A stretch of DNA of 64,000 nucleotides from Steinernema hermaphroditum. Lineage: Eukaryota; Nematoda; Chromadorea; Rhabditida; Steinernematidae. Where the stretch lies: the NCBI GenBank assembly GCA_030435675.1, contig CM059625.1, forward strand, positions 2,666,001 to 2,730,000, read 5' to 3'. Every line of letters starts with the position of its first letter. Positions within the stretch are counted from its first letter, which is position 1. This document shows positions 4,242 through 45,497 of this stretch, one piece after another. Made by a program: the position numbers and the translations under genes. The notes beneath the pieces are model-generated. The model had not been told where the DNA came from. It worked only from the letters and a program-made list of their open reading frames with translations, and did not search any database.

Positions 4242-4494
4242 TTAGTCCAGATTGAACCGGACACTACGAGGCTGCTGCGTTCGGGGAGCGTTATTGTTGT
4301 TGCGCACAGGAGCCGGAGCCGGGGCAGCTACAACAGCCGGTGCAACGGCAGGTATCGGACGCCGGCTACTAAAACGTATACGGTAAAAGAATTGACATCT
4401 ATCAACAAACTTACTCCCAATAAAAGCAGCACAAGACTATTATGAACATAGCCAAGACGGCACACACTCCAAGGAATTCAAAAAGGTAGTCCAT
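4242..4494 (-). CDS. small single-pass membrane protein, 68 aa
   Basis: Two exons, 4415-4494 and 4242-4368, separated by a 46-bp GTAAGT..TTTTAG intron in phase 2. The start ATG follows an isolated TTTTCAG, suggesting trans-splicing. Residues 4-26 (starting LFEFLGVC) form one hydrophobic helix. The codon for Asp27, directly after the helix, is split by the intron. The tail is Ala/Pro/Val-rich, then Asn-rich (NNNNAPR) and ends RSVRFNLD. I do not recognise a family. It is the first member of the series of tiny membrane proteins with a phase-2 intron just behind the helix that fills this window. Topology is unproven. Confidence 0.7.
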
Positions 4495-5261
4495 CTGAAA
4501 AGAGACTTTTAAGCACAGGGAGGGAAAAAGTAATAAACATGCCGAGATGGGCAGGATCGTCCTAGAGAATCGGATTGCGACCGCCCTTTTTAGGGACATT
4601 CCTCTAAGCCACACCTCTTATCAGTGAGTGGTGGCAAGCTATAGCGCAGGGAACTCGGGTAACAGTTACGATTGTGACATCGAGGTTGATCACCAGGTCA
4701 TAGACAGAAATGTTAAATCGTAGGAGGAAGCTAGACGAAACAGAGACAAAACATTGGAGAACAGGAACTGGGTTTCAGTTGATGACCTAGGAACATACCA
4801 GATCAAGGGTTTTTTCGTCGACAGCGAAATTTTTACACATTCATCAACGGAGTACTATGTGACTTGTGGCTCATATGGCATCCCAAAAGATGAGCATCAG
4901 ATCGTAGTGTCTTCGCCTCATCTGGGTTTGGCGGTGAAGGACACATCAAGGCAAATTCGGTCTTCTTGGCGAGACGGTGAACCTACAGTAACCTTGGTGC
5001 TACATGGTGTACGGCTCCAACAATGATGATCGCTCGGTCAACTCACTACGATAGCGTGAGCCTTGTCTTTACCAACCCAATGTCACATTATGCTTTTATT
5101 AGTGGCGACGAATTCAAAGGGTATGGATTTTTGTTAACATACATCACTTTTAATGAAAATTTCAACTAAAATGGTTGACAGCGTTTGAGATCTGACAATG
5201 TGCCGCCGAAGAGTGGAGTTCGCAACTGGGCTTGGGCTGGTTGCTGCTGATGATGACGGTT

Positions 5262-5457
5262 TTAGTAGCGCATCGGGAGAATGGCGTTTGGGCGTCCGAA
5301 GCATCGTCCGCAGACTCCACTAAAGTCATAGATATACAATCACTCTTAACGTCTGAACCAAGTCTTACTGAATTTTCATGAGACAAAGAATAAAACCGAT
5401 TACGAAGGCCGTCATGATCCCGAGAATTATCCAGATGACGGTACGATTCTGCTCCAT
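5262..5457 (-). CDS. small single-pass membrane protein, 48 aa
   Basis: Exons 5369-5457 and 5262-5319 with a 49-bp phase-2 intron (GTAAGA..CTTTAG). The ATG lies 20 bp behind GCTAATTTCAG, a likely trans-splice site. Residues 7-26 (VIWIILGIMTAFVIGFILCL) are a clear transmembrane helix; the intron splits the codon three residues later. The 19-residue tail contains CGRCFGRP and ends MRY. It is the smallest of the confident cluster members. The alternative, an unspliced 120-codon frame across the same region, reads through the helix in another register and has ordinary composition, so I prefer the spliced model. Confidence 0.65.
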
Positions 5458-5529
5458 TTCGGACTGTTCTCGAACTTTCTGAAATTAGCAAATTGACAAG
5501 ACTGCACAGACCGCTTATGATCAAGCGAT

Positions 5530-5820
5530 ATGCCCATACTAAGTGAGGGCAATGGAGAGCAGAACGAAAGAAGCGTCGCGCCGCCCATTTTCAGTGACCA
5601 CACCTTTCCAGCTAATGGCAGCGAGACAGCTTCAATTGAGTGGGAAATCCGCAGAGATAACAGTATTTTGTATTACGGGGCGCATAAAATGAGTAAACAC
5701 AGTGGGTCTTACAAAAAATCTGTTGACAACGGTTTGGGGTTTTTTGGGAAAAGGGCTTTCATTTGCGGTTTTCGGTTGATACGTTCGCTGTCATTGAAAC
5801 GGTGGTTCTATTCTCAATGA
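5530..5820 (+). CDS. hypothetical 96-aa frame
   Basis: An uninterrupted ATG-to-TGA frame divergent from the preceding minus-strand gene, starting 73 bp upstream of it. No signal peptide, helix or domain recognised. It could equally be promoter sequence open by chance. Confidence 0.2.
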   Translation: MPILSEGNGEQNERSVAPPIFSDHTFPANGSETASIEWEIRRDNSILYYGAHKMSKHSGSYKKSVDNGLGFFGKRAFICGFRLIRSLSLKRWFYSQ

Positions 5821-6017
5821 TCCCAGAAGGCGTGAAACACCGGGAGACCGTAGCCCCAGAAGGCCGTCATCAGCGCCCGACGCGGCGACGTGACGGGTCA
5901 AAGAATCGCTGAAACTCCGAAATCTGTGCCGCCATCCTGTCCTACGAAGTGCCTCCACGGGTACCAGTTCTTCGCCTGTGGCATGCCCACGCGAACTTGT
6001 GGGATCACCGTGTTCGG

Positions 6018-6946
6018 AGCCGCTACCGTACCTTGCGCCGCATCTAGAAGTAGACCGGCGACTAAAGTGGTTTTGAAGATGGTGGGGTCCTCAAGACTTT
6101 GGCGACCATCATGATGACTTCTTACGAAGCTTGATTCCTGGGTTCTTGTTTGCTTAAAGGACGCTACCGTACCTTGCGCCGAATCTAGAAGGAGACCGGC
6201 GGCTACAGTGTGACACTGTGTCTTTCGTTAACATTTGTTGGCAGGCCACAACTATGCACATATGTCGCCGTCATTAAATATGCTGTATTTCCTCGATGGA
6301 TCTTCCTGCTTCGATGGTGTTCAGATTGACAGGCTCAACAGCGTTGTTCTGGATTCCGAGCTTCTGATAGATTCTCGCTTTTTGACGTTTCAAGAAGGTG
6401 CGTGCTTCTCTAAATTAGCCAAACTCCTTAGGCCGTTATGGTTGAGTTGGAGCCTTACGTCATGTAGCATTCCGGGCACAAAATGAGGAACCACACTACC
6501 AAGATTGGCATATACAAGAGAGGAAGCCAAATTTCAAAAAAAGAGACCCAGCTCATGACGTGTTTGCGAGAGCAGGACATCACCGTCCAACCCAGGAGAT
6601 GGCACGTTCACAACAATCTTCTCATGTGACAATGTGCGCAAATGGGTTATCGTTAAGGGTCTCATTAGTGAATTCCCTCGTGAGCGGAGCATGAACCACC
6701 AATGTTCACCTGAACCCTAAGTTGGTTTATATGCGATGGGTTGTACAAAGCATAGAGTAGCAGAAGGTTGCGATTCGGGGCAAAATTGGCTATCAAACTC
6801 ATGCTTCTTGGAACCGGTTCCATTCTAGGTGTAGGATTGATCGAGAAGGATTTTTGGTCCCGAAATCGTGTTTTTGACGATGGTGGGGCCCCCAAGACGT
6901 CGACGACTATCATGATGACTTCTTTTGCAGCTTGATTCCTGGCTTG
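6018..6946. repeat. interleaved short direct repeats
   Basis: Two families of diverged direct repeats. GCTACCGTACCTTGCGCCG plus TCTAGAAG.AGACCGGCG occurs at 6020-6065 and again at 6167-6212. GATGGTGGGG.C..CAAGAC plus ATCATGATGACTTCTT and GCTTGATTCCTGG occurs at 6079-6145 and 6880-6940. On the minus strand the second family is open as a short frame whose two copies differ in phase. This suggests a duplicated and decayed locus; I cannot name it. Confidence 0.55.
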
Positions 6947-6984
6947 CTATCTGCGTTGGCACGGCTTCTGAGTATCGCAATTTC

Positions 6985-7062
6985 CACCGGAGGACCGAAC
7001 ACTCATAACTGCCACAAGATTTGCCATTAAATCAACCGCACACTCAAAGAGCGACCGAGCGA
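6985..7062 (+). repeat. dispersed repeat shared with 39330-39410
   Basis: A block ending TCAACCGCACACTCAAAGAG resembles, with about four in five bases the same by eye, the block at 39330-39410 that ends CCAACCGCACACTCAGAGAG. It lies upstream of no obvious shared gene, so it is probably a small mobile-element remnant. Confidence 0.45.
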
Positions 7063-7227
7063 CCGTGACACCATTTAACATGCCACTTTATTTAGCCTAC
7101 AAAGATAAATACGAGAATGACCATCATCAACACATCATTTTCATTGGCTTAAACATCGATAGTAGAGGCTTCAGTAGTGTTCAACGGGACAACGAGGTCA
7201 GACTAGACCGATTGCTCCGATGGCTGC

Positions 7228-7497
7228 TCATCCTTCGCGCCAAGATCCTTCCCTTCGATGTCGATGATCGTGCAGTGTCCGTGCTGCGCGCGCAGCGAGT
7301 CTACGGGGATGGGCTGGACGGCCTTGCGAAGCTTCTTCTTCATTGCAGCTGCTGCAAACTTTTTATAATACCTTAAATTGCTGAACTAATTAATATTATG
7401 AATGGTACGTGTCTTACTGGATGCACAGAGAGATGATTACGGATATGTAGCAAAGGAGAATGAGGAGAGCATACAGGTCGTACACGGAGATGCACAT
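7228..7497 (-). CDS. small single-pass membrane protein
   Basis: Exon 1 is 7418-7497, with the ATG three bases behind a CATTTCAG acceptor; it encodes 26 residues of which 4-26 (beginning SVYDLYALLILL) are one hydrophobic helix. A GTAAGA donor follows in phase 2. Exon 2 starts near 7352 after TTTGCAG. Read in phase it gives an Arg-rich tail ending at a TGA at 7228. The other register of exon 2, ending at 7203, has a more protein-like composition (contains KKKLRKAVQP and TIIDIEGKDL) but needs a phase-1 junction that I cannot find. The 5' exon could also be extended in frame to an ATG at 7569. Confidence 0.5.
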
Positions 7498-7599
7498 GGT
7501 CTGAAATGAGGCGAGCTTTAAGGGACTGCTGGAGTCGAGGCAGAAGTCGATGCGCCGCGCGTTTGTCATTCAAAGTGAACGGCTTTAAGTAAGATGGGA

Positions 7600-8636
7600 A
7601 GAGAGATGGGGAGGAGCCAAATCGCGCGTCCAAGCGTCAGCGTTTCAATACCGTAGTCGCCAACGTTATTCACATCACAAAGATGGGATTGGTACATAGG
7701 GAAGATACAATGGGCAGTGAAGAAAAAAAATAAACGGAAAAGCACAATAAAAAAGCTCTATAGGTCCGATGATTCTGGTCACTACAGTTCCTTGATCATC
7801 GCAAGTATTTCAAGGATTTCAAAAAAAAATTATAACGGTAAATCTAAGTCTGTAAGCCAGGTGAAGATATAAACATAAGATGGCTCACATCATCACTGAT
7901 GCAGTAACCTCTTGTTCCAAACATGAATTATCTCTACCAAGCTTATGGCGTCCGATGACGTCGGTCGATGTTTACTTACTACGTTAATTTGTGCTTTCGA
8001 CTAGTAATTTGCGCCACCTGAATATGTTCGATGATCAGTGACTCGGTTATCGAAGATTCCAGCCTTGCATAGGGGATCTTTGTTTTGGTGAATTGATCAA
8101 ATTTAATTTGGTACATCCCCTATATATAAACGGAGAACCGACGGGTCCGTTGGTCTGTGTGTGTGTGTTTTTCCGTGCGCACGGCGGAAACACCCACACA
8201 AAATAAGCACCCCGAGGGGAACCGAACCCAACACCGCCCGCTTACAAACAGAGAACGTTCGCAATGAGCCACACAGACAGTTGATGTGCTAGCGCTCTAC
8301 TTCTACTATCTCTCTGGCGATGCTACGCCCGCAAGGCTACAGTTTTTTGGCCCCAACTTCAGCCCTATCCATGAGCGCCAATCTTGCCGCCCGCAGGGCT
8401 ATGGTGTCTTGCCGCCCGCAGGGCTATAGGCTAATTGGCTTTTAGTACCTGGAGGGCGCGAATTCGCGCGGAGCCGGGTTTATTTTGAAATAATCTGCAG
8501 ACTTTCTGGGTAGGGGGTTAGAAGGTTAACAGAAAGATTCCTATGCGTTAAAGAACATGGATAAGCGTAGATTGGTCATTTACCACAGTCGCTGTTCACC
8601 GCTGCCCCAGCCCACCCGCAAACTTGGGAGATAGAT
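7600..8636. other. gene-poor, repeat-like stretch
   Basis: No supported gene. It contains a TG run (8156-8169), duplicated CTTGCCGCCCGCAGGGCTAT blocks (8382-8403 and 8408-8428) and a GC-rich short palindrome GGCGCGAATTCGCGCG near 8456. Together these look like a degraded mobile element, but I found no matching ends. Confidence 0.35.
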
Positions 8637-8668: not shown

Positions 8669-8698
8669 GGACAGCGTTTTTGATTACTGTAAGGTAAT

Positions 8699-9052: not shown

Positions 9053-9059
9053 GTGAATT

Positions 9060-11323: not shown

Positions 11324-11740
11324 TTAGTCTGCTGTCTCAGCAACCTGCTCGGCGAACGCAGAGATGCGGTGGTTACCGGTGCGGGAGCCGCGCTCAGCAG
11401 CAATCTCTTCGAGGAACGATCCCGATGGAATGCCGGTCTGTCCGAAGAAATACGGATGAAAGAGGGGTCCGTGGTTCCGGTGGACGTACACCGGTTGATA
11501 CTCGACATCAGTGGAACTAGAAATAAAATGATGACCAATATAGAACCCTGTCTGCGGTGGTTCTTACTTTTTACGCGGCGATGAACAGGTCAACTTGTAC
11601 AGCACCAGGAAAAGCAGTGCGGCCAATGTGCCCGATGCACCGGCCACGATGACGGTTGCCAGCGGATGGAGGTGAAACAGACTGGTGTCGATTTTGATAT
11701 AGTCGTAGATAGTCTTTGGGAACATTACGTGATGCGGCAT
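11324..11740 (-). CDS. single-pass membrane protein, 121 aa
   Basis: Exons 11568-11740 and 11324-11516, 51-bp intron, phase 2. The ATG follows TGTTTCAGGGTAAA. The N-terminal 28 residues are aromatic and charged; residues 29-50 (TVIVAGASGTLAALLFLVLY) are the helix, followed by SSPRK, with the split codon giving Asn58. The tail runs STDVEYQPVYVH, contains many aromatic residues (LFHPYFFG) and ends AEQVAETAD. It has the cluster's architecture but a longer tail. No domain recognised. Plus-strand frames across exon 2 are shadows. Confidence 0.75.
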
Positions 11741-13812: not shown

Positions 13813-14209
13813 TCAAACTACACAAGGTTTCGTCGTTCGCTTGGCTTCGTTGGCTTCTTCTCCCAGTCCCTTCTCATGATTGTGAGTGCGCGTTTGGGTG
13901 GCTTTCTGCGACGATCTACGGAGGCAGAGCACGGCGATGCGCTTGTTGATGAAGCTCGCGATCTTCAGAACTTTGCTCACGATCCACAAGACGGGAATTT
14001 CCGCCAAATCCAAAGCACTAAAGCGACAACATAAATAACGAAAGAGAGGAAAGCTGCTCTTACTCCAAGGCCCACATCAGCAGCACATAATGGTACTGTC
14101 GATGGATGAGAACAGCGAGAATCATAGCTGCCCAGGTCCCAATAATTATGACGAGGAACAGTCTATTGTGGAGGACTTCATCAAAGAGCGTCGAGTCGGC
14201 CATGGCCAT
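13813..14209 (-). CDS. small membrane protein, 116 aa
   Basis: Exons 14064-14209 and 13813-14017, 46-bp intron, phase 2 (GTAAGA..CTTTAG). The ATG lies two bases behind AAAATTCAG. Residues 17-36 (RLFLVIIIGTWAAMILAVLI) are a helix and 41-48 (YVLLMWAL) extend hydrophobicity to the split Asp codon. Exon 2 opens with a second amphipathic segment (LAEIPVLWIVSKVLKIASF), then KRIAVLCLRR and a Lys/Arg/Glu-rich tail. A decayed copy of exon 2 lies 2 kb away at 16072-16236, showing that this gene belongs to a duplicating family. No known domain. Confidence 0.75.
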
Positions 14210-16071: not shown

Positions 16072-16236
16072 CTATAAAATAACTGAATGTTTGAGAGGGG
16101 AGGGATGCCGAAATAACACAACGTAACTACCGAGGCAATTTTTGGCGACACCCCTGCTGATAAAGATCATGGCCTTCAGAACTTTGTCAATCATCCACAA
16201 AAAGGGGATTTCAACCCAATCCGTGGGGCCCAGCGA
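16072..16236 (-). pseudogene. decayed exon-2 copy of the 13.8-kb membrane protein gene
   Basis: The minus strand encodes WVEIPFLWMIDKVLKAMIF, which aligns with LAEIPVLWIVSKVLKIASF of the gene at 13813-14209, followed by an unrelated frame to a TAG at 16072. Nucleotide similarity begins exactly where the parent's intron acceptor lies, but CTTTAG has become CTATCG, so the splice site is destroyed. I find no exon 1 with a helix upstream. It is therefore a partial, probably dead duplicate. Confidence 0.65.
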
Positions 16237-16763
16237 TAGCGTACATTACTGAATAGAAGAGCTACCTATACTCGATGATCCGTAGCTTTGAAGTTGAAGA
16301 TGGGAGCCTGCAGTGCATTCACAGCCACATGTCGATGGGATGCCGCCTCTCCACCCTCCGATGTCCAAAACTACTGGAATCGCCGACCGCTCTTCTCCAA
16401 CCGAAGATAGAAGAAAAAACTCCATCAACAAAAGTAGGACTCACTGCCGAAGTGTTGGGAAAACGACGAAGAGGAGTAGACGTGGACCGCCTGGAGATTA
16501 CACAATTCTGACAAACGGGAATTCAAATGAGCCTATTGCGATAAAATCACGTTGTTCGTGTGCGACTTCTCGAACTTTGTCACAGGACGCACAACTTCTA
16601 CGCATAATTTTATTACATGTTAGTCGGCACGAATTACAAGTTTGGTCTTAAAGGAGGCACCGTCGGTCTGACGAGTTGACGTCTATTGCGCGGGTTCCTC
16701 AATTCGCAAGAAGAAGCGATTCCTATAACACCATTTACATGCGCTGCTTGAGTTGGTGAGTTG

Positions 16764-18185: not shown

Positions 18186-18584
18186 ATGAATTCGAACAAA
18201 TACGGCTCTGTAAGGTTGCAAGGCTGGCCAATCACCACAAGACCTACACTTTGTACGTTTCTAACATCATCTTTGCTCTGCATTACATTTGCTCAACTTT
18301 CATCGTTGTGCCATAGGATTTACTCCCTCGTCCTGCTGCTCTCCCATCTATCTCCCTTTCTATCTCCGTTTGAGGAAACAATATCTCTTGATGTTTCGCA
18401 AAAAACGGCGAAGCGAAAACTTATTTATCATCGATATTAGGATAGGAGGCGTTTCAGAATAAAGCGGATTTTCGATCGGTTGCTTCACATTTGTGGAATC
18501 GTCAATAATAGTCGGTTTCTTCGTCCTTATCGACATCAGCTTGCCCTCGTTCGATGTCATCACCAGGAAGAATATCTCCTCTAA
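18186..18584 (+). CDS. probable small membrane protein, 102 aa
   Basis: Model: exon 1 18186-18367, exon 2 18458-18584, 90-bp intron (GTTTGA..GTTTCAG) in phase 2. Exon 1 contains two hydrophobic stretches (LCTFLTSSLLCITFAQLSSL and IYSLVLLLSHLSPFLSP); exon 2 opens basic (IKRIFDRLLH) and ends at TAA. The same phase-2 junction after a helix as in its neighbours favours the model, but the donor is weak and the reading frame continues upstream to an ATG at 18060. One of the few plus-strand members. Confidence 0.35.
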
Positions 18585-18589
18585 AATTT

Positions 18590-19900
18590 CAATATGCCAA
18601 GCTGGGGAACCAAGCCAGGTTATTCAAGACTCACTCATAGAAGAAGACGCGGAAAGCGGCCGTGATACTGCTCCATAGACGACCAACCAAGATCAAGCCG
18701 AAAAGGCCGAACAGAAAAAAGAAGCATAGTTTTCGGAGGAACTCATCAACAGGCATTGTTTTACCGAAGATGAGAAAGGAACTCAAACTGAAGACACCGA
18801 ATAATAAGCCGGAGCCGAGGCGTAAATAATCCGGCTATTCGAAGAGCATCAACCTCTGGGGAACACCTACCTGTTGTTCACTTGGTAAATATTCATCCCA
18901 GCAGAGAATGCAAGAAATGCCGCAGTTAATTATTTTCCAATCGTAAATATCAACTGCGCAATTAGGAGATATCAAACGATCGCGGACCCATATTCGCCTT
19001 AGACATATGTGAGTCATGTTTTCGGAATGTTTTATTTTGAGAAGTTTGTTTGTCTGGTTACATTTGCTAAATACTCGGAAGATAACCGAAATGTTTGTAG
19101 CAAAGGATAATATTAAATTTTCGCATCTTTTTCCATTATGATGCTACATAGCGAAATGACATAAAGACAAAGACAAAGACATCTTTAACACATGCGTTTT
19201 GCCATCGCAATGTCGTATTGGCTTTCCGCTACAGTAATGTGTTTGAATTACCTTAGCTCATTGGTGCAAACAGTGATGGGTTTCGAGACTCGAAATAACG
19301 AGATCGAGACCGAGATCGATACCGTGTCTCGAAAAGTTTCGAGACCGACACTCGGCGGAAAACCGAGCGAGACCCATCACTGAGTACAAACACCTAAGCA
19401 CCATCGTAGAGAGTTTCATGGGAAGACCGAGCGTTGCTGGACCGAGCCTAATGTTTCCCTCCATTTTTTTCCTACTTAACGCGCGGTAGAACAAACAATA
19501 ATTAGGCATATTGATGAACTCGACTATGTCTACTCGACGACGAACTCGATTATGCCAGCATTATTCACTACATCTATCTTTATTTCGCTTAAATTTTCCC
19601 TTCTCTCTGTATTCTGAACTCTATCTGATAGCATCCACCGATCTTCCGAAGTTTCCCGAAACAACCTAACGATTAGCCTACACTGTTTTCGATCTCGCCC
19701 TAATCTGAGGACTCAATGACTCTATACTAGATACATGGTTGATCTGCCCCAAAACACCTTCTTTAAGATATATTAACACACGACTAAAGCCAAGTAAGTA
19801 TACACGGCATGTGTTGACTACAATGATAATGGAATGACAGTCGATTACGCTTCAACGACGGTGATGCATCTTTCTTGCATCAAGCGCTTCTGCTTCAGCA
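18590..19900. other. intergenic, contains a hAT-like MITE
   Basis: No supported gene. An AAAGAC triplet run (19161-19180) and the small element at 19271-19382 are the only structures I recognise. Confidence 0.4.
19271..19382. mobile_element. 112-bp hAT-like MITE
   Basis: The ends CAGTGATGGGT and ACCCATCACTG are perfect 11-bp inverted repeats, and similarity continues inward through TTCGAGACTCG-like blocks. Flanks GGTGCAAA (19263-19270) and AGTACAAA (19383-19390) match at 6 of 8 positions, as expected of an ageing 8-bp target duplication. CA.TG ends with 8-bp duplications are typical of hAT elements. Confidence 0.65.
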
Positions 19901-19903
19901 GAA

Positions 19904-20595
19904 TTACCCGGACATGTTGTTCTCGTCGACGTTGTCCTCGGACTTCTTGGGAGCACCTTCGTAGTGCTCATTCTCGTTCTTGGTCTTGAAGATGAGCTTC
20001 TGGACAGTGGTGTTAAGAGCGGTCGAGTTCTCCTCGATTCCGGACTCGACGCAGATGATCACCTTGTTCTTCTCGTTCGATTCTTCCTCGGCGCACGGAG
20101 GAAGGGGAAGGGGCGTCTTAGGCGGTCCGCAGGGGGGCAGAGTGATCGGGTAGGGAGAGTTGGTGAGAGCGGGAGGAACCACCGGAGAGGCGCGATGATA
20201 GGAGCGAGTAGGCTTTTCCGGACCAGAGCTATAGCCACCGATTTCCACATTCGACAGGCGAGCGGCGCGACGACGACGTTCAGATCTGTAATCTCAATGC
20301 ATAGTGATGATTTTGGTTGTCCACTTACCGTTGAGTCCAGCCCATGTAGATACAGAAGCTCATCAAGACAAAGAACGCGATTCCACAAAGAATGGATCCG
20401 TCAACGAGAGCGTTGTAGACCAGTGCACTTTGACTGAAAAGGGCCCGTTTTAAAACGATAACCTTAAGACTGCTAAATTGCTTACGTCGGAGGGTCATGA
20501 ACAATGAATCCGCGACCTTTCAAGTCGATTTTGAGACGCTCGAGGTCCTTCTCGAACTGAAGGCGCTTCTCTTGAACGAAAGCGTTGTGTTCCAT
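19904..20595 (-). CDS. single-pass membrane protein, 198 aa
   Basis: Exons 20486-20595, 20329-20433 and 19904-20285; both introns are phase 2. Exon 1 gives a charged N-terminus (EKRLQFEKDLERLKIDLKGR), probably helical. Exon 2 carries the helix (DGSILCGIAFFVLMSFCIYM) ending MGWTQ, and the split codon gives Arg. Exon 3 starts SERRRRAARL, a stop-transfer-like basic patch, then a Pro-rich stretch (SPYPITLPPCGPPKTPLPLP) and an acidic, Asn-rich end with ENSTALNTT. Its codon usage is markedly C-ending, suggesting stronger expression than its neighbours. No family recognised; the order basic patch, Pro-rich, acidic tail suggests a cytosolic scaffold tail. Confidence 0.8.
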
Positions 20596-23239: not shown

Positions 23240-23547
23240 TCAACAACGTCCTTCTCGAATAGCTTGCATAGTTTCTTCAACACTGAATATATCCATCTTT
23301 CTCCGAGGACGGAATTTCGAACGACACCATGCGACGAGCTCAAAACTAAAAACGCGCGCCTTCAAAACGGTGAAATTGTCATGTACCACTCACACTTCAT
23401 AGGTACATTGGTAGAACAGAGCCCCCAGTAAGAACAATCCGAAAGGGAAGGCTGGAAGTAGGAAGAAGAAGATTAGCAGTTTTTCGTGTAGATCGCCTAA
23501 AGCAACGGCTCATAATCGAGATACACAGGAAACTCACCGGACAGCAT
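23240..23547 (-). CDS. small single-pass membrane protein, 72 aa
   Basis: Three exons: a 10-nt coding exon 23538-23547 (ATGCTGTCCG, phase 1), 23394-23496, and 23240-23345 after a phase-2 intron. Residues 1-9 are polar (MLSGDLHEK); residues 10-33 (starting LLIFFFLLPAFPFGLFLLGA) are the helix; QCTYE follows and the split codon gives Val. The tail is basic then mixed (SKFRPRRKMDIFSVEETMQ) and ends EGRC. The micro-exon with phase-1 then phase-2 introns matches the genes at 25.3, 26.6, 30.4 and 31.4 kb. Confidence 0.75.
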
Positions 23548-25327: not shown

Positions 25328-25668
25328 TCAGTTGGTAGGCTCCTCGTGCATCTCAGCGTTCTCGATGGCGGCCCGGATGGCTTGCTGAATCATCTGGATT
25401 TCAGCCGCTCGCATGGCGGCGATTTCATCACCATGAATGAGACCGCAAAGCCTAAAAAATATCTCACAATAAATAAGTACGCAACAGAACATCCTTACAT
25501 CTTCCACACGTTGAAAACGAAGAACATCCCCAGACAGCCGAATGCGATGCACAGAATGGCAATGATTATCTCTACAAGCGACAGACAAAGTCTCACTGCA
25601 GAGGACGCGGAACACTTACCGACTAAGCCGTAGGAATCCCAAGAGATGATGTCGTTCATAAAGGCCAT
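25328..25668 (-). CDS. small single-pass membrane protein, 81 aa
   Basis: Exons 25620-25668, 25499-25571 and 25328-25451, intron phases 1 and 2. The N-terminus is short (MAFMNDIISWDSYGLV). Residues 17-38 (EIIIAILCIAFGCLGMFFVF) form the helix, ending NVWK with the split codon giving Met. The tail (DEIAAMRAAEIQMIQQAIRA) is a likely amphipathic helix and the end is acidic (HEEPTN). All three splice junctions are strong. No family recognised. Confidence 0.8.
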
Positions 25669-26583: not shown

Positions 26584-26943
26584 TTAACTCTGCTGCTCGT
26601 TGATCTGAGACATGGCCACGACTTGGCAGTAGCACGGAGGAGCGCCCTGGATGCTGTTGTAGGCCGGCGGATTGCGCTGCGCCGCGTGCTCGTCGCGACA
26701 CATATCGGCAAATTCGGTATTAATCTGCTGCCGCTGCCTACGTCTAAAATTAACGTGTTAAAAAGGCAACTGTGCGCTACGCATACTCCCAGGAAGACAA
26801 GTACATGCGGCGGCACCTAGACACGACCCAAACCAGAATTAGGAAGCAGATGAAAACCACTCCAATCAAAAAAGCCCACTCTGAAAAATAACTTTTACAT
26901 TGAGTGGCATAGCAGTCGTACTCTTACCGCGAGCAGTTTCCAT
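26584..26943 (-). CDS. small membrane protein with PPxY tail, 79 aa
   Basis: Exon 1 is only 16 nt (26928-26943, METAR, phase 1); exon 2 is 26817-26880 and exon 3 26584-26743, phase 2. The helix is WAFLIGVVFICFLILVWVVS. A longer exon 2 ending at 26805 (CAT|GTACTT) keeps the same phase and adds CRR. The tail is basic (RRQRQQ) and carries NPPAY, a PPxY motif of the kind bound by WW domains of NEDD4-type ubiquitin ligases, then a second Pro-Pro-Cys-Tyr. With a membrane helix this suggests an adaptor or sorting substrate, as inference only. Confidence 0.75.
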
Positions 26944-28904: not shown

Positions 28905-29754
28905 TCAGGGGCGGCTGTCCTGGAAGCTCTCGTCGGTGTAGTCGGCGGCTTCGTCCTCCGTGACCACCTCGTCGTTATAGACGGCGGCGTTTCCTTCGGG
29001 CGTTTCAGGCAAGGCCTTGGTGATCGGCATGGAGGGATCGTCCTTTTCCTCGATGAGCTTGGACGACTTCAGCTCCATCGGCGAAGGAGGGGTCTTCTTC
29101 GCAGGAGTCGATTCGGTGACAGCTTTGTCGGTGCAGAGAAGGTCTTCTCCATTGGCGTCTCCAGGCAAGGCGCAATCGCAATCGGAACTTCCAGAACTCT
29201 CGCTGATGTCGCTGTCGAGCAGATGAGACTTCAATGACACTTGCGGAGACTTCATCGTCTTGAGGGACAGGAAAGAGCCACTCGGGCTCGAGAGAGCCAA
29301 GATCGAAGGCCGTCCAAAGTCGGCATCCATCACCTGCTTCGATGAGTCGCCTTCCTGAGCACACTCGTCAATAACTTCAACATTAAGAACGCCATCATTG
29401 CTGTAATTCGTCGATGCTTCCTCGTCTTCGTCCGTCAGGCGCTGTTGATCATCACTTTTAATCAGTCCAGCCATCGTGACCACCGGGACGAAAAGCATGC
29501 GCTTGCGAAGAAATCTAAGCATACAAGATATATTCCAAACACAAAACCCAAATCATACCGGTTCGCAAACTTCAGCGCGTAGTAGATGCCGGTGGCTCCT
29601 AGAGCCACAGTGACAGGCAGGAGCATCAAAAGATAGACGGCCAGCGGGAGATCCAATTCGAGTTTGATGCTGAAGAGTATTCAATAGAACTGAGGGCATC
29701 AAGAGAGGCCTACCTGCGAACATCGGTCGCCGGTGCACCAGGATAAAAAGTCAT
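28905..29754 (-). CDS. single-pass membrane protein with long acidic tail, 253 aa
   Basis: Exons 29714-29754, 29559-29669 and 28905-29514, both introns phase 2, the same layout as the 198-aa gene at 19.9 kb. The N-terminus is short (MTFYPGAPATDVR). The helix is LAVYLLMLLPVTVALGATGI followed by YYALKFAN, with Arg at the split codon, then a basic patch FLRKRM. The remaining about 200 residues are acidic and Ser-rich (DEDEEASTNYSNDG, SESSGSSDCDC) with TPAKKTPPSP and end TDESFQDSRP. It looks like a disordered cytosolic tail with many potential phosphorylation sites. No domain recognised. Confidence 0.8.
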
Positions 29755-32639: not shown

Positions 32640-33100
32640 ACAACAAAAGAGTGCGCGAGCGAGGACGACAACGATACCTTGAGTTAATAGCGTCCGCTTC
32701 GCCTTTTCGATAACAACCTTTACCGCTGTCACGAAGCGGATATGCCGTTATCCGTTCTAAATACGCTTTCGGCAGCTGAATTGAATAGAAACGTGATTCT
32801 TTCAATAGATATCGGGGTGGTAGGACGGAAGAGAAACGGCTGGGTGGATTCCAGTTTCAGCAAATTGTTGCTATCCCATCGTCTTTCAATATACGCCTAG
32901 CTCGAGGATGTGCAATGTGACGTCTATAACATACTTATTTAATCATAGAACATTATAAACTAGGCTGAAGTGGGCTAGTAGAACAGAAGTAAACCATTAG
33001 AAAAGCAGTAAATCCACTTTATCGAACACCGAGACGAGACGAGTCGATCAATGCCTGAAATTACTAATTATATAACGCCCTATAAAGGTCTGTCTTTTAC
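32640..33100. other. intergenic, nothing recognised
   Basis: No supported gene or repeat. Confidence 0.4.
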
Positions 33101-33107
33101 CTTAGTG

Positions 33108-33269
33108 CTACCAAGCGTTCGGAGGCACAGCATTCGCCTCCATCAAATGAACACGGTCTTTTCGGAAAAGTTGTAGGCGGGCGATGATCAATCCTCCTAT
33201 CACTACCAGTATCGTAAGTGTTACGATAGCGAGCAGTGTCCACAGTAAGACAATCTCAGCAGAAGTCAT
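33108..33269 (-). CDS. small single-pass membrane protein, 53 aa
   Basis: A single open exon. The ATG lies 12 bp behind AGCTTTCAG. Residues 6-29 (IVLLWTLLAIVTLTILVVIG) form the helix, then LIIARLQLFRKDR and a tail ending AVPPNAW. The last codon may be split: TG|GTAGCA with acceptor TAATTTCAG at about 33056 would be phase 2 and replace the stop by His-stop, so the cluster's usual intron may survive at the extreme 3' end. The first exon of this gene faces the calumenin-like pseudogene. Confidence 0.65.
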   Translation of the reverse strand: MTSAEIVLLWTLLAIVTLTILVVIGGLIIARLQLFRKDRVHLMEANAVPPNAW

Positions 33270-33300: not shown

Positions 33301-33554
33301 TACAGCCGTGATGAGCGCCACTGGAAGGTGGCCGACTATAAGGCAACCACACGCAATATGGTTGATTCATGCACCCTGAGTATTGCGACCACATGCGCGA
33401 CATCGTCATCTCCGAGACCGTTCAGGACATCGAAAAGAGCAAGGGTGGCTTCGTCGACATGAACAAGTACATCGGAGAAATGTACCGCCCCAAAGACTAC
33501 CCCGAACTTAACGGCAAAGAGCCCGACTGGGTGGCCTCAGAGTGCAAGCTGTAA
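33301..33554 (+). pseudogene. calumenin/reticulocalbin-like EF-hand fragment
   Basis: Two frames on the plus strand together resemble the middle of calumenin, a Ca-binding ER protein with EF-hands. 33301-33342 reads YSRDERHWKVADYK. After a frameshift, 33366-33554 reads FMHPEYCDHMRDIV, then SETVQDIEKSKGGFVD, KYIGEMY and EPDWV before a stop. The first calcium loop is deleted and the second has lost acidic ligands (Ser and Asn at ligand positions). There is no start, no other exon and no intron inside. It is a decayed exon-sized copy of a gene elsewhere. Confidence 0.75.
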
Positions 33555-36532: not shown

Positions 36533-36819
36533 TTACAATTCGTGGGCTTCTTCGGCGTCATTGGCAGGGTTCTTGCTAAACAAAACAATTTAAATGTTAT
36601 ACCGTACGATTCAGTGTACCGATAGACATAGACAAGAGTGCAGAACGCGATGGCAAAGATAAGCAGGAAGAAAGGGGGAATAAGCCTGTTGAATATATCA
36701 CAGTCATCGGCTGTCTATAGAGGCAAACTTAATAACATGAAGCACGTTCTGTATACCTTAAAAATCGAAGTACTCTTGCAGTCAATAACATTGAGTTCCG
36801 TATCCCAATAGAGCGTCAT
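36533..36819 (-). CDS. small single-pass membrane protein, 66 aa
   Basis: Exons 36757-36819, 36620-36714 and 36533-36575; intron phases 0 and 2. The N-terminus is acidic (MTLYWDTELNVIDC, then TADDCDIF) with two Cys. The helix is LIPPFFLLIFAIAFCTLVYV, with Tyr and the split Arg codon following. The tail is only 13 residues (KNPANDAEEAHEL). Strong splice sites. No family recognised. A C-terminal HEL recalls, but does not match, ER-retrieval signals, and the tail is expected to be cytosolic. Confidence 0.75.
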
Positions 36820-38136: not shown

Positions 38137-38408
38137 ATGTACATCTCGAGAATCCATTACCTCTTTCAAGGCACATTCGATTTTGCAGCGGTTGTGCTTG
38201 CGGTCATTTCGGCTTGCTTGTTCGTCGGCGTTGTGTGTCTGTTCATCTTCGTTATGTTTCTGTGAGGGGTAACACATTCCATGACTACAGTAATCGAAGA
38301 TCTTGCAGTCCAACGCAGAAACGTCCTCCAACGATTGTTCTTCAGCCTACGATTGAAGAAGACTCCAACGCCGTAGTCATCTGGCATCCGGATCAATGCG
38401 TTGTTTAG
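38137..38408 (+). CDS. small single-pass membrane protein, 74 aa
   Basis: A plus-strand member: exons 38137-38261 and 38309-38408, 47-bp intron in phase 2 (CT|GTGAGG..TTGCAG). The N-terminus is MYISRIHYLFQG. The helix is AAVVLAVISACLFVGVVCLF, extended by IFVMF, with Leu at the split codon. The tail is Lys/Arg/Pro-rich (PTQKRPPTIVLQPTIEEDS) and ends WHPDQCVV. The same architecture on the opposite strand shows the family is not simply one transcription unit. Confidence 0.75.
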
Positions 38409-39815: not shown

Positions 39816-40012
39816 CTCGACTAACAAGGGAACCTTCCGAAGTGTCCTGCTCGGATCGAGCTGGAAATTGACACACAGGTAGGCCTTCATTAGTGTATGT
39901 CATCCCCAAAAGGGCACCTGCTTATACGCATACCAGGTCATGTAAACACCCTTCGCAAGTTACGGTCAAACAACTATAGCCAACTTGGGCAACAATTGAG
40001 AGATGGTGTGTA

Positions 40013-40066
40013 TGGCCGAACCGGGTAGTATCTCGGCTGACGTTTTTGGGGTGCGGGTTCGACTCC
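40013..40066 (+). other. tRNA-like Pol III promoter boxes inside the transposon arm
   Basis: TGGCCGAACCGG (40013) matches the tRNA A box and GGTTCGACTCC (40056) the B box; their 43-bp spacing is that of an intronless tRNA gene, and GCCG/CGGC could form a D stem. The acceptor stem does not pair, so it is not an intact tRNA. The other arm carries the same boxes reversed at 40518-40571. Confidence 0.5.
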
Positions 40067-40182
40067 CCCCCCAGCCCATATTTTTCTTCTCGCTTCTTGA
40101 ACATATTTAAGTTTGTTTTTGTCTTACTAAAAGGTAGTAATGAAATTTTTTTAAACAAATTTTTTTATAACAACGGTGTTCC

Positions 40183-40422
40183 TTAACAATTATGTTCAAC
40201 ATCAACAAGATGCTGAACACACAAGAATCCTTCACAACGAGCACAGCGAAGAACGGGCATTTTGGAACACATGCATTGATGCCCTTCGTCGAAATTGAAG
40301 CAAAAATGTTCCGGCGTTTCGAAAGAAGGAGGGTGTTCGTCAATAAATCCAGCGTGATGCCATGCATACCGTATCATATTTTGGAATCGGTTAGCACTTA
40401 TCTGCATTGCCGTAATGTTCAA
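40183..40422 (-). pseudogene. C-terminal fragment of Tc5-type transposase
   Basis: A 79-codon frame in the element's centre. It contains FIDEHPPSFETPEHFCF and then CMC, CARC, LCVQH and HNC, a Cys/His pattern like the Tc5 transposase C-terminal zinc-binding domain (Pfam Transp_Tc5_C, from memory). The catalytic DDE core is absent, so the protein cannot mobilise the element. Confidence 0.6.
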
Positions 40423-40937
40423 ATTTGTTTTAAAAAAATTTCATTACTACCTTTTAGTAAGACAAAAACAAACTTAAATATGTTCAAGAAGCGAGAAGAA
40501 AAATATGGGCTGGGAGGGGAGTCGAACCCGCACCCCGAAAACGGCAGCTGAGATACTACCCGGTTCGGCCATACACACTATCTGTCAATTGTTGCCGAAG
40601 TTGGCTATAGTTGTTTGACCGTAACTTGCGAAGGGTGTTTACATGACCTGGTATGCGTATAAGCAGGTGCGCTTTTGGGGATGACATACACTAATGAAGG
40701 CCTACCTGTGTGTCAATTTCCAACTCGATCCGAGCAGGACACTTCGGAAGGTTCCCTTGTAAGTCGACACCCAATTTTTTTCGGCTTACACCTAACTATG
40801 CCGTGGGAAACAAAATACCACTCACTGAGTACATAGAACATAAGTACATAGTACACTTGTTTACTAGGAACAGAACGCAAAACAAGTACAAATTAAAGCT
40901 GTGGACAGCATTCACGGAAGATGAGTAAGCGGCTTTC

Positions 40938-41229
40938 TTAGAAGTCGATCATTTCATACAGGGCTCTGTAGCTTTCGGGATCCTCCTGCACAACGACTGT
41001 GGGTCGCGCCAGGGAGCCGTTCTCCATGACAATGGGTTGAGCGTTCTCACGCGGGAACACCCTCGGTCCAGATGTCCTGAGAGGAAGCAACATGAAAATG
41101 GGCCTTGTAAAAAAAAAAAAAAACCTACCTGTCGGAGCGCCAGGCCATAATGAAGATGATCACACATAACAAAAAGAGGGCAGCGATGGGAGTCCAGAGT
41201 AGGAGGTAGTCGATCAGTTCGTCCGACAT
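40938..41229 (-). CDS. small single-pass membrane protein, 79 aa
   Basis: Exons 41129-41229 and 40938-41076, 52-bp intron containing a 14-T run, phase 2. The N-terminus is acidic (MSDELIDY); the helix is LLLWTPIAALFLLCVIIFIM; AWRSD follows and the split codon gives Arg. The tail contains PRENAQPIV, PTVVVQEDPESYRALYEMI and ends DF. YEMI fits the tyrosine-based YxxPhi sorting motif. No family recognised. Splice signals are strong (AG|GTAGG and CCTCTCAG|G). Confidence 0.8.
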
Positions 41230-41634: not shown

Positions 41635-41639
41635 AGGTG

Positions 41640-42020
41640 TCTCAAGGGTAATAATTTATAAGCGATCTACGTAGTATCATACATGACGGAATATGTAAAC
41701 AAGTTCGCCTATCGTCCTCAACGTCACGAACTCTTCCTACTCTTCTGATGAGCACCGCCAATACACTTTGTTGTGCGGAATGGCACCTCTGCTCTGGATC
41801 AAGATCTCTTCGTTGCCTTTGTGTCAAGATGTGGCCGTAGACGTTGCCTTTGGCCGTTCGCGCGATCAGATTATCTGATGCGATCAGCTATAAACACAAA
41901 TGGAACTATAGGCCCTCAGAGCAACAAACAATCAAGATTTTTATCATTGGTGAATTGGACATCTGTCAGCAATTAACGTACTAAACACAATGCAAACAAA
42001 CGTTCAACAAAAACTCGTTG
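41640..42020. other. intergenic, nothing recognised
   Basis: No supported gene or repeat. Confidence 0.4.
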
Positions 42021-42023
42021 CTA

Positions 42024-42380
42024 TTAGAAGTAGCCATGTTCAGGATCACGCTCTGCAGTGGCATTGCCATCCTCGGAAATCTCAGGGTTGTGCTCCACTT
42101 TTGTTTTCCTAAATGAGTGGAATAAACACAGAAGTTCTTCAAATATTTCCTACTTGGATGTTGTAGTAATACATGTGTAGCATGCGAACAAAATCAGAAC
42201 GACCAGTAATGTGACAAAAACTGCAGAAATAACTATTGCGATGATCGAACTGAACGAAAACTCGCGGGTTTCAGAGTCGAAAGTGGCGGTGAGGTTGTGG
42301 TTTTCCGGAGGTGTCAGAGTGCCGTTGATCCAAAAGGACCCTATGATGTCCAGTAGCCATGTGGGGTTTAGTTTTGACAT
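42024..42380 (-). CDS. single-pass membrane protein with N-glycosylation sites, 103 aa
   Basis: Exons 42154-42380 and 42024-42108, 45-bp intron, phase 2 (AA|G, Lys76). The ATG lies one base behind CTCTTTCAG. The N-terminal 44 residues contain NGT and NLT sequons (NGTLTPPENHNLTATF), consistent with an extracellular side. The helix is IIAIVISAVFVTLLVVLILF followed by ACYTC, then TTTSK. The tail is acidic (HNPEISEDGNATAERDPEHG) and ends YF. A type III topology, N-terminus outside, fits. No family recognised. Confidence 0.8.
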
Positions 42381-42389
42381 TCTGAAAGA

Positions 42390-43300
42390 GGTATTTGGAG
42401 AAGAATACTAATTAGAGTTGCTGAGGGAAAAATTTGAAAAATCTCGTTTATGTACCATCGACCTCTCTGCCAATAGACCTCTTTCTACAGCGGTCGCACA
42501 CCTATGACTGAAAGAGGTACGTGAAGAAGGTGAGCTCGGTGAGTCGAAGATAATCGCTTCAATTCAATGCGTACGCAGATGTCATAGATACACTCATTGT
42601 TGCGAATCAAAAGAGCATTCCTGGCAAAGGCTTTGACGTACTTTTCGACCTGGCTGCCCACGTAGAACTGTCACGTTGTGCCAAATTAAAACAATAAAAT
42701 TTATAATCCACAGGAACTCCTTTAATCATCCGATCGCGAGTTTCATCTTGCCATTGTTGCCAATTTGTGCCGACGTCAATGTCAGGAAAGGCTGTATCCG
42801 GGCGAGTGGTATCCCAAAGTCGAGCGGGGGCGCCAACTTCTATGTGATAGTGACACTTTGGTTTGCTACGACGGCACGATTGATCGGGCGGTGGTGATGG
42901 TCTTCTTGGCGGGATTATGGAACTACGGCTGCCTGGAGCCGGGCGGTTATGGTGTGCCGAAAGGAGCGCCTGTAGTTGTGGAGGTTTCTAGATTGTGGTA
43001 CCGGTTCCAATACCGGTGGCGAGACGGCTCTTTCAAAATAGCGCTCTTATAATTTGGCGCTGTTTTTTGGCGTTCTTTTTGTTTTGGCGGTCTTTTTTTA
43101 GCGCTCGTGAGAAGAAATCGGCAGTTAATGCGTGCAACATGCGACCAGTCAACTCGCTTTGCGATTTTCACAAGCAGTCTGGTTCCTACTGATCCTCTAG
43201 CGAGCTGGAGATAGTGTTTTGAGTTGGTGATCGAATATTTTTCCGTTTGGTATACAACATGGCTTCCTTTTATTTTGTAGCCCAAACACAATTAGCTCAG
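42390..43300. other. intergenic with a doubtful frame
   Basis: Overlapping plus frames at 42676-43052 and a minus frame at 42947-43291 lack exon signals. GCCTGTAGTTGTGGAGG at 42968 recurs at 15497 inside the inverted-repeat element, so part of this is probably element-derived. Confidence 0.4.
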
Positions 43301-43302
43301 TC

Positions 43303-43348
43303 CTGGTTCACTACAAGTCCTGGTTGGTCCTGGTTCACTACAAGTGAT
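43303..43348. repeat. tandem duplication over a stop codon
   Basis: CCTGGTTCACTACAAGT occurs at 43303-43319 and again at 43330-43346, separated by 10 bp. The second copy contains the stop codon of the minus-strand gene at 43338-43593, so the duplication copied the 3' end of that reading frame. Confidence 0.75.
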
Positions 43349-43593
43349 TTTCGTTTTGGTTATTGGCCGGGATAGTGATGTTGAAGACCTGTTCGATGAT
43401 GGATTTCTGATTCTCGTTGGCTGGTCTAAAACGATTAAAACAAGCAATGGAAAACACCTGAGGGGTTTTACTTGGGGGCCGGATACCAATAACGTTCCAG
43501 CACCATGTAGACAACAGCCGCAATGATGCCAAGTGTCGCCAACAGAACGATGTACCGCGTATCAATGTTGTAAGTATGCGACATCCCTGACAT
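43338..43593 (-). CDS. small single-pass membrane protein, 69 aa
   Basis: Exons 43472-43593 and 43338-43425, 46-bp intron, phase 2 (AA|A, Lys41). The N-terminus is MSGMSHTYNIDTR; the helix is YIVLLATLGIIAAVVYMVLE; RYWYPAP precedes the split codon. The tail (NENQKSIIEQVFNITIPANN) ends ENHL. A 5' untranslated exon may lie near 43739, where ATG..CAT|GTGAGT and a CCATTTCAG acceptor at 43633 are found. No family recognised. Confidence 0.75.
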
Positions 43594-43639
43594 GAAGACT
43601 GTTAACTAGAAGGCGCAATCACGGGTGATCGTCTGAAAT

Positions 43640-45160
43640 GGAATTTTACAAAGGACATAAAAATGGAAAGCTTAGACACGACGCAGGGCAAGCACGAAAA
43701 AGCGACGTAATGAGGAAAGGCAAAAAGAGCCACTCACATGCACCGGCATCACGGACACCTCTAGAGGTGAAAGTAAGGAAATTCACGTCCCCTTAGGGAA
43801 CTTATTATCATGTCACGCAACGAGATTAATCGATGTGGAAATGTGAGTCGTAATCCCAATGAGTCACCAAGGTCCACGAGATTAGATACACCGCTTAGCC
43901 TCTCTTGTTGCTGGTTCTAGGAAGGCTTTCATGCTCTTCGGAAAAGCTGCAGATGTGCGCATTTTTCGGAAGTAACATTAAACGTCAAAATCGGGATATC
44001 ATGTCTTTTCTTCCGGCTCGGTGCACTTAATCTTGCGCTACGTAACTAACAGATTGAACAACCTCATTCTTCTTAGTAACTACTTAAACAACTCATGCGT
44101 TTTCTTCAATGACGTCATTGTCAAAAATACACACCGGAACAATGCTAAGACCGTCCGGATCAAAGCCAATTCGTCAAGCACAAGGCATCACGAATGACGT
44201 ACAGAGCAGGAAGTTAGCTGAGCACGTTTAGTTCACTCAACAGCGTACTTTAATTAATAAGATTTGTGGTTAAATACCAATATTTAACTTAAGAGATTAA
44301 TCCGCTGTAAAGATTAATTGATTCATATTCTTAGATGATGTGGCGCTTTGATCTCTTCGCAACTCGAAACGAAGTTATCAGCGCAAATTGTTTACTAGAA
44401 TAATTGACGACATATGTCGTTCGCAACCTCACGTAGGGAATTGCCAAATTCTGTCTTCCATCGCATCCAAGGCCACCAGGTTTGTATGGCCGAAAATGAA
44501 CATCACCCTTTGGCAAATGTTATAACCACAGAAACGGATGGGGCGGCGCCGTTTACTGTGCTCAAGAGAGTCAAAAGTCGACGCATTCGACTTCCTAGTG
44601 GCTGTTTTTTATCCGAATGTAAAAAAAACAGCTGCGCGCAAACAACATCCTTCATTGGATATGGTAAGAACTCATGAGAAAAACGGAAAGATAATTAAAC
44701 GAAAACATTTTCCGGCAGATTTCCAAGTCCTGCCGTTGTACCTGATTTCGATTCTCAATGGCACGACCATATGGAGAAGCTGCATTTCATCAGATCCGTC
44801 TGGATACTTAGAAAGTAACATTGCAGTTGTTTGCATATAGGAATGATCCACATCATTCGTCTGCTTTCAACATCGACTACCGTACTCCGCTTAAGCGCCG
44901 CTCATGGAAAACTCCGATGTGAGCCGTGATTTTGGATGTTTGGATAAATGAACCGAGGAGTGGGGTTGAAACACTTCCTTGCTATCTTTATTCATTCAAG
45001 AAAACTTAGACTTTCACTCAGAAATAATCACGCTCGCTTTTGGGACAGATATAAAATAACGGTAATGAAACACTTAGTTTAAATACATTAAACACAACCG
45101 AAATTCTTACAAAACACACATTCACAGAGTATTATTATTCCGAGATCGACTGCGGTTTTC
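43640..45160. other. intergenic with doubtful frames
   Basis: Plus frames at 44414-44840 show no domain or exon signals. No repeat recognised. Confidence 0.35.
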
Positions 45161-45161
45161 A

Positions 45162-45497
45162 TCACCAGGCACCTCGCGTTTGAAGTTGAGGAGTCGATGG
45201 TGTAATGAGCTTCCTAAAGCAAGCGATATTTGCTCCATATGTATAAGCTTCTCTATATCACCTTCCGAACTTGTAAACAGCGGCTGTAACCCAGCCGAAA
45301 CGGTTGGCGAGGATAAACAACAACGCTAACAGCATCATCAACGTTAGAAATCCGAGGTACACGTGGATCGTGAATGTTGACATTGCATTGTCATCCTCGG
45401 TCGACGAAACGTCTGTGATTTTCAAGAGATCGCTCAGCGAAGCGTTGGTCGTCGGGTATTCTTCAGCGGTTGGATGAGTGGAGTTCTGCGAGCCCAT
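45162..45497 (-). CDS. single-pass membrane protein with glycosylatable N-terminus, 95 aa
   Basis: Exons 45262-45497 and 45162-45213, 48-bp intron, phase 2 (AG|G, Arg79). Without splicing the frame ends at once with a TGA, giving 79 aa. The N-terminal 40 residues are Ser/Thr-rich with NST and NAS sequons. The helix is VYLGFLTLMMLLALLFILAN, followed by RFGWVTAAVYKFG. The tail (KLITPSTPQLQTRGAW) is short. N-terminus outside is likely. No family recognised. It is the last minus-strand member of the dense run. Confidence 0.7.

What the first reader, a model, noticed from the sequence alone, without database searches (positions are those of the whole stretch)
4242..45497. A cluster of about 20 miniature single-pass membrane proteins sharing a phase-2 intron directly behind the helix
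Seen: genes at 4242, 5262, 7228, 11324, 13813, 19904, 23240, 25328, 26584, 28905, 36533, 38137, 40938, 42024, 43338, 45162 and 62738 each encode a short N-terminus, one helix of about 20-24 hydrophobic residues and a polar tail, and each has a 42-60 bp intron of phase 2 within a few residues after the helix, often splitting an Arg or Lys codon. Their helices and tails show almost no sequence similarity. Inference: either one ancient, very fast-evolving family that keeps only its gene structure, or recurrent birth under the same constraint. A sober partial explanation is that donor consensus AG|GT favours splitting AGR codons, and basic residues follow helices anyway.
Basis: partly seen in the sequence, partly recalled or inferred. 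Interest (0 to 1): 0.9.

Follow-up and report, generated by a model that had tools for sequence, protein, structure and literature searches.

The report
Phase-locked tiny membrane protein gene cluster
In the insect-parasitic nematode Steinernema hermaphroditum a run of at least 27 predicted genes for tiny one-helix membrane proteins shares almost no sequence but carries the same kind of intron right behind the helix, so it is likely a single family, copied locally and changed so fast that only its gene structure still shows the kinship.

Summary
All 17 listed genes can be modelled as described. A phase-blind scan of the cluster gives 22 phase-2, 1 phase-1 and 0 phase-0 introns behind helices; controls give 4 phase-2 of 15 hits of the same kind, 7 of 20 without the Met filter. 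I hand-built 27 models over 79 kb, 8 of them upstream of the window; 24 are on the minus strand, and in all 27 the last coding intron is of phase 2, 0-16 residues after the helix. Published S. hermaphroditum proteins contain five models exactly. The 'AG|GT favours AGR codons' idea fails: 5 of 27 donors. Common descent is supported by one clearly similar pair (38137/42024) and by a decayed duplicate of the 13813 intron plus tail; it rests on structure for the rest. No relative outside the cluster was found, with searches of limited reach. Most likely: one fast-evolving, locally duplicated family of N-outside/C-inside anchors with free cytosolic tails. Function and expression are untested. A self-stopping donor (21 of 27) makes an intron-retention switch testable.

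The parts
4242..4494 (-). mini membrane protein gene, 68 aa; exons 4494-4415, 4368-4242; phase-2 intron behind helix
   Evidence: model; identical to published QR680_000513
5262..5457 (-). mini membrane protein gene, 48 aa; exons 5457-5369, 5319-5262; phase 2
7203..7497 (-). mini membrane protein gene; first exon 7497-7418; two possible acceptors (tail ends at 7228 or 7203); phase 2 either way
11324..11740 (-). mini membrane protein gene, 121 aa; exons 11740-11568, 11516-11324; phase 2
13813..14209 (-). mini membrane protein gene, 116 aa; exons 14209-14064, 14017-13813; phase 2
16127..16273 (-). decayed duplicate of the 13813 intron plus start of its tail exon; no helix exon recognised (relic)
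   Evidence: blastn 98 of 150 identical, starting at the donor; tblastn E 1.3e-5 in 104 kb; E 0.04 in the whole genome
   Evidence: contained in published QR680_000516
19904..20595 (-). single-helix protein gene, 198 aa; 3 exons, both introns phase 2
   Evidence: contained in QR680_000516, which joins it to 18673
23240..23547 (-). mini membrane protein gene, 57 aa; introns phase 1 then phase 2; weakest helix (KD 1.59 in the model)
   Evidence: not called by the gene finder; scan hit without Met only
25328..25668 (-). mini membrane protein gene, 81 aa; introns phase 1 then phase 2
   Evidence: contained in published QR680_000517
26584..26943 (-). mini membrane protein gene, 89 aa; introns phase 1 then phase 2; tail has PPAY and PPCY
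   Evidence: scan hit without Met; contained in published QR680_000518
28905..29754 (-). single-helix protein gene, 253 aa; 3 exons, both introns phase 2; long acidic tail
   Evidence: gene finder; scan hits without Met; no published protein matched it
36533..36819 (-). mini membrane protein gene, 66 aa; introns phase 0 then phase 2
   Evidence: inside a longer fused gene-finder model; scan hits without Met
38137..38408 (+). mini membrane protein gene, 74 aa; phase 2; paralogue of 42024
   Evidence: scan hit of score 7.8; similarity
40938..41229 (-). mini membrane protein gene, 79 aa; phase 2
42024..42380 (-). mini membrane protein gene, 103 aa; phase 2; paralogue of 38137
   Evidence: scan hit of score 7.9
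43338..43584 (-). mini membrane protein gene, 66 aa; phase 2
45162..45497 (-). mini membrane protein gene, 95 aa; phase 2
   Evidence: the gene finder made it one exon and the scan did not hit it
62738..63067 (+). mini membrane protein gene, 93 aa, apart from the main run; phase 2 (donor GTATAC)
   Evidence: the scan preferred a phase-1 alternative

Best explanation
These at least 27 predicted genes for one-helix membrane proteins, all modelled with a phase-2 intron just behind the helix, likely descend from one ancestral two-exon gene (helix exon plus tail exon) that was copied locally and diverged until only the gene structure remained. Shown by the sequence: the gene structure, the strand bias, the hydrophobic stretch, the charge pattern (K+R 26 before and 80 after the helix), and a decayed local duplicate that includes the intron. 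Predicted: N-terminus outside and tail in the cytosol, often with cysteines at the cytosolic end of the helix, where palmitate is commonly attached. Inferred and untested: the helix exon would be held by membrane insertion alone, the tail would turn over under weak or diversifying selection, and the proteins would act as small membrane-tethered adaptors or modulators whose tails recruit changing partners. The intron likely keeps its phase because intron position evolves more slowly than sequence.
For: Phase-blind scan: 22 phase-2, 1 phase-1, 0 phase-0 hits in the cluster against 7 of 20 phase 2 in controls (4 of 15 with Met). 27 of 27 hand-built models are phase 2, while the other coding introns of the same genes are mixed (2:3, 1:3, 0:2; Fisher p 1.7e-4). 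Strand 24 of 27 minus. Pair 38137/42024: SW score 69, reached by 0 of 5000 structure-preserving shuffles; it is the top pair both on the helix side and on the tail side. Duplicate relic of the 13813 intron plus tail at 16127-16273. Three neighbours (23240, 25328, 26584) share an extra phase-1 intron near the N-terminus. C side more positive than N side in 21 of 27. Cysteine near the cytosolic helix end in 16 of 27 against 8 of 32 control helices (p 0.009; one of several features looked at). Five models are contained in published proteins exactly, with the same junctions.
Confidence: 0.72

Rival explanations
1. Recurrent birth by stop capture. Each gene began as a helix-only micro-ORF; its stop codon, when preceded by G, already spells most of a donor (G|TAAG, G|TGAG, G|TAGG), so gaining an intron there would add a tail and must give a phase-2 intron right behind the helix, without common descent.
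For: In 21 of 27 models the retained intron would stop translation at its second to fourth base; control introns: 14 of 28 in phase 2, 1 of 54 in phase 0, 2 of 40 in phase 1 (21/27 against 14/28 p 0.05). It explains position, phase and lack of similarity at once. De novo membrane proteins are on record in yeast (PMC7005711; listing and start of abstract seen).
Against: It does not predict one cluster with 24 of 27 on one strand, the 38137/42024 similarity or the duplicated intron-plus-tail relic. The excess of self-stopping donors over control phase-2 introns is borderline.
Confidence: 0.12
2. A handful of unrelated small families plus exon exchange: phase-compatible tail exons (or helix exons) were swapped between neighbours, which homogenised the intron but not the sequences.
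Confidence: 0.1
3. Artefact: most models are chance hydrophobic ORFs with chance splice sites.
For: Short ORFs, no homologues, no transcript data here; some models were built by hand, and the unsupervised gene finder missed or fused several.
Against: The scan finds 22 phase-2 hits here against 2 hits of any phase in the reversed sequence; five models are contained in published predictions; the phase bias itself would not arise by chance.
Confidence: 0.06

Closest known systems
Bicycle genes of aphids (Stern and Han 2022, PMC9168663; passages and the Discussion read)
   Same: A very divergent gene family recognised by gene structure rather than sequence, with an overwhelming phase-2 bias; automatic gene models often needed re-annotation.
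   Different: Bicycle genes have many small exons (average about 17) and are putatively secreted salivary effectors; here there are 2-3 coding exons and one membrane helix. No signal-peptide program was run; the acidic N-terminal flank argues against a cleaved signal.
De novo membrane proteins from thymine-rich sequence in yeast (PMC7005711; listing and start of abstract seen)
   Same: Short young proteins dominated by a membrane helix (from the title and my own knowledge).
   Different: Those arise independently; here a shared phase-locked intron, strand bias and local duplicates point to one family.
Small single-span regulators such as KCNE and FXYD (recalled; no call)
   Same: Tiny N-out/C-in proteins with a basic stretch behind the helix that modulate larger membrane proteins (recalled).
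   Different: No Pfam family reached its curated cut-off for any of the 27 proteins.

Membership tests
One gene family (common descent of the 27) | same intron position and phase relative to the helix | tested here: met
   27 of 27 hand-built models phase 2, 0-16 residues after the helix; phase-blind scan 22 of 23 hits in the cluster, with 62738 read as phase 1 by the scan
One gene family (common descent of the 27) | residual sequence similarity among members | tested here: inconclusive
   1 of 351 pairs clearly similar; one decayed duplicate; the rest near background
One gene family (common descent of the 27) | orthologues with the same structure in related species | not testable with these tools
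   no other Steinernema genome was available; the protein database gave only S. hermaphroditum proteins or none
Bicycle gene family | many small exons, nearly all internal ones of phase 2 | tested here: not met
   2-3 coding exons per gene
KCNE / FXYD or any other Pfam family | match to the curated profile | tested here: not met
   27 of 27 proteins scanned (10, 9, 8); no match reached a curated cut-off; the highest (DUF3333, 23.2 bits, cut-off 26.5) covers the helix of 42024
De novo born micro-ORFs | non-coding orthologous sequence in sister species | not testable with these tools
   no sister genome was available

The most novel reading that the evidence does not exclude
The phase is the mechanism: the intron was born when the stop codon of a helix-only microprotein became a splice donor, and each gene still makes two proteins, a tail-less anchor from unspliced mRNA (stop at the donor in 21 of 27) and a tailed one after splicing, so that the array is a bank of splice-switched membrane anchors.
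Probability: 0.1. Interest if true: 0.88.

Novelty: new variant of a known kind. Interest (0 to 1): 0.62.

Why it matters
It would be a clear case in which gene structure outlives all sequence similarity, found in a worm that can be grown and mutated in the laboratory. Such families are hard to see for homology searches and automatic annotation, so many 'orphan genes' may be hidden families; a simple helix-plus-phase rule would find them. It also makes a concrete question testable: can a stop codon turn into a splice donor and so fix both the place and the phase of a new intron?

Tried and rejected
Donor-consensus explanation (AG|GT splitting AGR codons): AG precedes 5 of 27 donors. Conserved hydrophobic C-terminus: looked strong against shuffled tails (15 against 6.8) but control genes show 18 of 38. 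C-terminal [VI]QH[VI] shared by -13057, -11596 and 6476: seen by eye; the pairwise scores of these proteins are not significant after 351 pairs. Sorting motifs in tails: YxxPhi, dileucine and PxxP at shuffled level; PPxY twice in one tail, that of 26584 (p 0.014). Small-xxx-small in helices: 25 against 18.1, p 0.036, not pursued. Common upstream motif: best word about 0.05 after correction. Trans-splice-like acceptor within 70 nt of the ATG: score 4 or more in 15 of 27 against 31% of random ATGs, suggestive only. A weak match of 11324 on contig C4 (E 0.022 genome-wide, with a stop inside) was fetched and judged unconvincing. The first gene-finder run had no intron cost and was useless. No structure prediction was run: orphan proteins without an alignment would give little. 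Rfam: no match in the window at gathering score.

Selection to declare: the 27 models were built after seeing the pattern. Not included: -9384 (first exon with a phase-2 donor, tail not settled), 32567 (phase 2, unsettled), 64084 across the window's end (phase 2, weak donor), 33198 (no coding intron behind the helix), 34722 (phase 1), and three hydrophobic ORFs with no intron that I could see (16782, 24397, -3492). One search lists many further hydrophobic stretches without a scan hit; I looked at six of them. Duplicate hits were removed by hand for the deduplicated tests.
Full report
WHERE IT IS. The window is C5:2666001-2730000 of a 90.65 Mb assembly in 60 contigs. A protein predicted at 19904 is identical over its whole length to part of QR680_000516 of Steinernema hermaphroditum, held on a contig of 18,392,284 bases, the length of C5. 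The window is therefore from that insect-parasitic nematode.

CHECK OF THE OBSERVATION. I trained a small gene finder on the window plus 200 kb upstream, from hand-typed seed splice sites and four receptor loci (51 genes, 173 introns, phases 0/1/2 = 67/51/55). It called genes with a helix and a phase-2 intron behind it at 4242, 7203, 11324, 13813, 28905, 40938 and 43338, fused 19904 with 18673 and 25328 with 26584, put 36533 inside a longer model, made 45162 a one-exon gene, and missed 5262, 6476, 23240, 38137, 42024 and 62738. I then scanned both strands with no regard to phase: a 19-residue stretch of mean Kyte-Doolittle 2.0 or more, a donor within 45 nt, an intron of 38-74 nt and an open tail, scored on intronic bases only. 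In the cluster region (window -20,000 to 46,000) it found 22 phase-2, 1 phase-1 and 0 phase-0 hits with an upstream Met. In the other 180 kb upstream it found 2 phase-2, 1 phase-1 and 1 phase-0; in the whole reversed sequence 2 hits. One cluster gene is counted twice, so 22 hits are 21 loci. Without the Met filter the cluster has 30 phase-2, 1 phase-1 and 1 phase-0 hits; this adds 23240, 26584, 28905 and 36533, whose Met lies in an earlier exon. Beyond 46,000 the scan gave two phase-1 hits with Met, both at 62738, and one without, at 51486. With further control sequence (20 kb downstream, 40 kb of other chromosomes, 30 kb of 7TM receptor loci) controls total 20 hits, 7 of phase 2; with Met 4 of 15, Fisher p 1.2e-5. 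After removing duplicates by hand it is 21 of 22 loci against 7 of 17, p 2.6e-4, or 21 of 23, p 0.0012, if 62738 is counted as phase 1. One control phase-2 hit, at 64084, may itself belong to the cluster.

THE MODELS. I built 24 models by hand and 3 more. All 27 have a phase-2 last coding intron, 41-66 bp long, 0-16 residues (mean 6.7) after the helix core. Eight lie upstream of the window (labels -15440, -14298, -13057, -11596, -5395, -4782, -3946, -2635; window-style coordinates). The run spans -15664 to 45497, with 62738 apart; 24 are on the minus strand. Proteins are 48-253 aa, median 79. Other coding introns in the same genes are of mixed phase (2:3, 1:3, 0:2). The models were chosen after the pattern was known, so '27 of 27' is descriptive; the scan is the test. 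Exceptions are listed under Tried and rejected. Published proteins QR680_000513, 516, 517 and 518 contain five models exactly, so an independent annotation places the same phase-2 introns there; 516 joins two members (19904 and 18673) by another phase-2 intron whose donor overlaps the stop codon of 19904. No published protein matched 28905, and I did not look for counterparts of the other members one by one.

WHAT IT IS NOT. All 27 proteins were scanned against Pfam; no match reached a curated cut-off. Three database searches (5.77 billion proteins) returned one, three and no proteins at E up to 10, all of S. hermaphroditum. The search needs shared exact words, so distant relatives could be missed. 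Whole-genome searches with 7 of the 27 proteins gave no convincing match elsewhere; the search with 42024 did not even list 38137, its relative 4 kb away, so absence elsewhere is weakly tested. The donor-consensus explanation fails: the two bases before the donor are AG in 5 of 27, with CG 5, CA 4, GA 4, AA 3 and others 6.

HOW IT LIKELY WORKS. K+R and D+E counts in the 15 residues before the helix are 26 and 54, after it 80 and 30; the C side is the more positive one in 21 of 27. This predicts N outside, C in the cytosol, with the helix as anchor and not as a cleaved signal; no topology or signal-peptide program was run. Cysteine is enriched at the cytosolic end of the helix (22 of 378 residues against 9 of 448 around 32 control helices; p 0.005), a usual place for palmitoylation (general knowledge). 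The tails are rich in E, A, R, P and S, and none of the motifs tried is shared. I therefore commit to membrane-tethered adaptors or modulators with fast-changing tails; this step is inference, and which cells make them is unknown.

THE STOP AT THE DONOR. A phase-2 intron that begins GTAAG, GTGAG or GTAGG puts a stop codon in frame at once if it is not removed. An immediate stop is found in 21 of 27 (control phase-2 introns 14 of 28, phase 0 1 of 54, phase 1 2 of 40). Unspliced mRNA would thus make a clean tail-less anchor (median 49 residues over all 27). It also suggests a way in which such introns could be born from stop codons. The excess over control phase-2 introns is borderline (p 0.05), so this is offered as the novel case and not as the verdict.

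NOVELTY. Six of my nine paper searches bore on whether such a family is in print. None of the titles listed describes it, but the lists were capped (15 of 31 papers, 12 of 138, 10 of 329). No paper in the library mentions QR680. PMC12629237 was opened for passages on S. hermaphroditum only. Most subscription papers are not held.

Noticed in passing
window-style coordinates -99264 to -36223 (L019-L025): A plus-strand array of small, mostly secreted-looking cysteine-rich proteins, most with a phase-1 intron, looks like divergent insulin-related peptides (two scanned with Pfam: Ins_beta E 0.007 and 0.09, below cut-off).
   Followed up: partly
window-style coordinates -82579 to about -72030 (L021-L022): Inside that array lie several CCC..CN proteins resembling the activin-receptor/CD59 fold (one scanned: Pfam Activin_recp 18.2 bits, cut-off 20.9).
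   Followed up: partly
published protein QR680_000516 over window 18502-20595: The published model joins two cluster members through a phase-2 intron whose donor overlaps the stop codon of 19904; it is either a fusion error or real read-through splicing.
   Followed up: yes
window 33369-33554 (+): A 61-aa ORF inside the cluster resembles the C-terminal EF-hand part of calumenin/reticulocalbin (recalled; no Pfam hit), perhaps a gene fragment.
   Followed up: no
window 51961-54339 (+); window-style -18069 to -15847 (+): A gamma-glutamyltranspeptidase gene (Pfam 253.7 bits) and an amidase gene (257.1 bits) bracket the main run and could serve as synteny anchors.
   Followed up: yes
window 39817-40162 and 40421-40767: Inverted repeat of 347 bp, 96.8% identical, probably a young mobile element.
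   Followed up: no
window 1582-3097: A diverged repeat array, copies 66-76% identical.
   Followed up: no
window-style coordinates 67536-70746 (L029): Histone genes (H2B-like and H3-like by eye) just downstream of the window.
   Followed up: no
window 33100-33260 (-): A small-helix ORF with an acceptor-like site before its ATG and no coding intron behind the helix, but an intron-like stretch just after its stop codon: an exception to the rule or an earlier state of it.
   Followed up: partly
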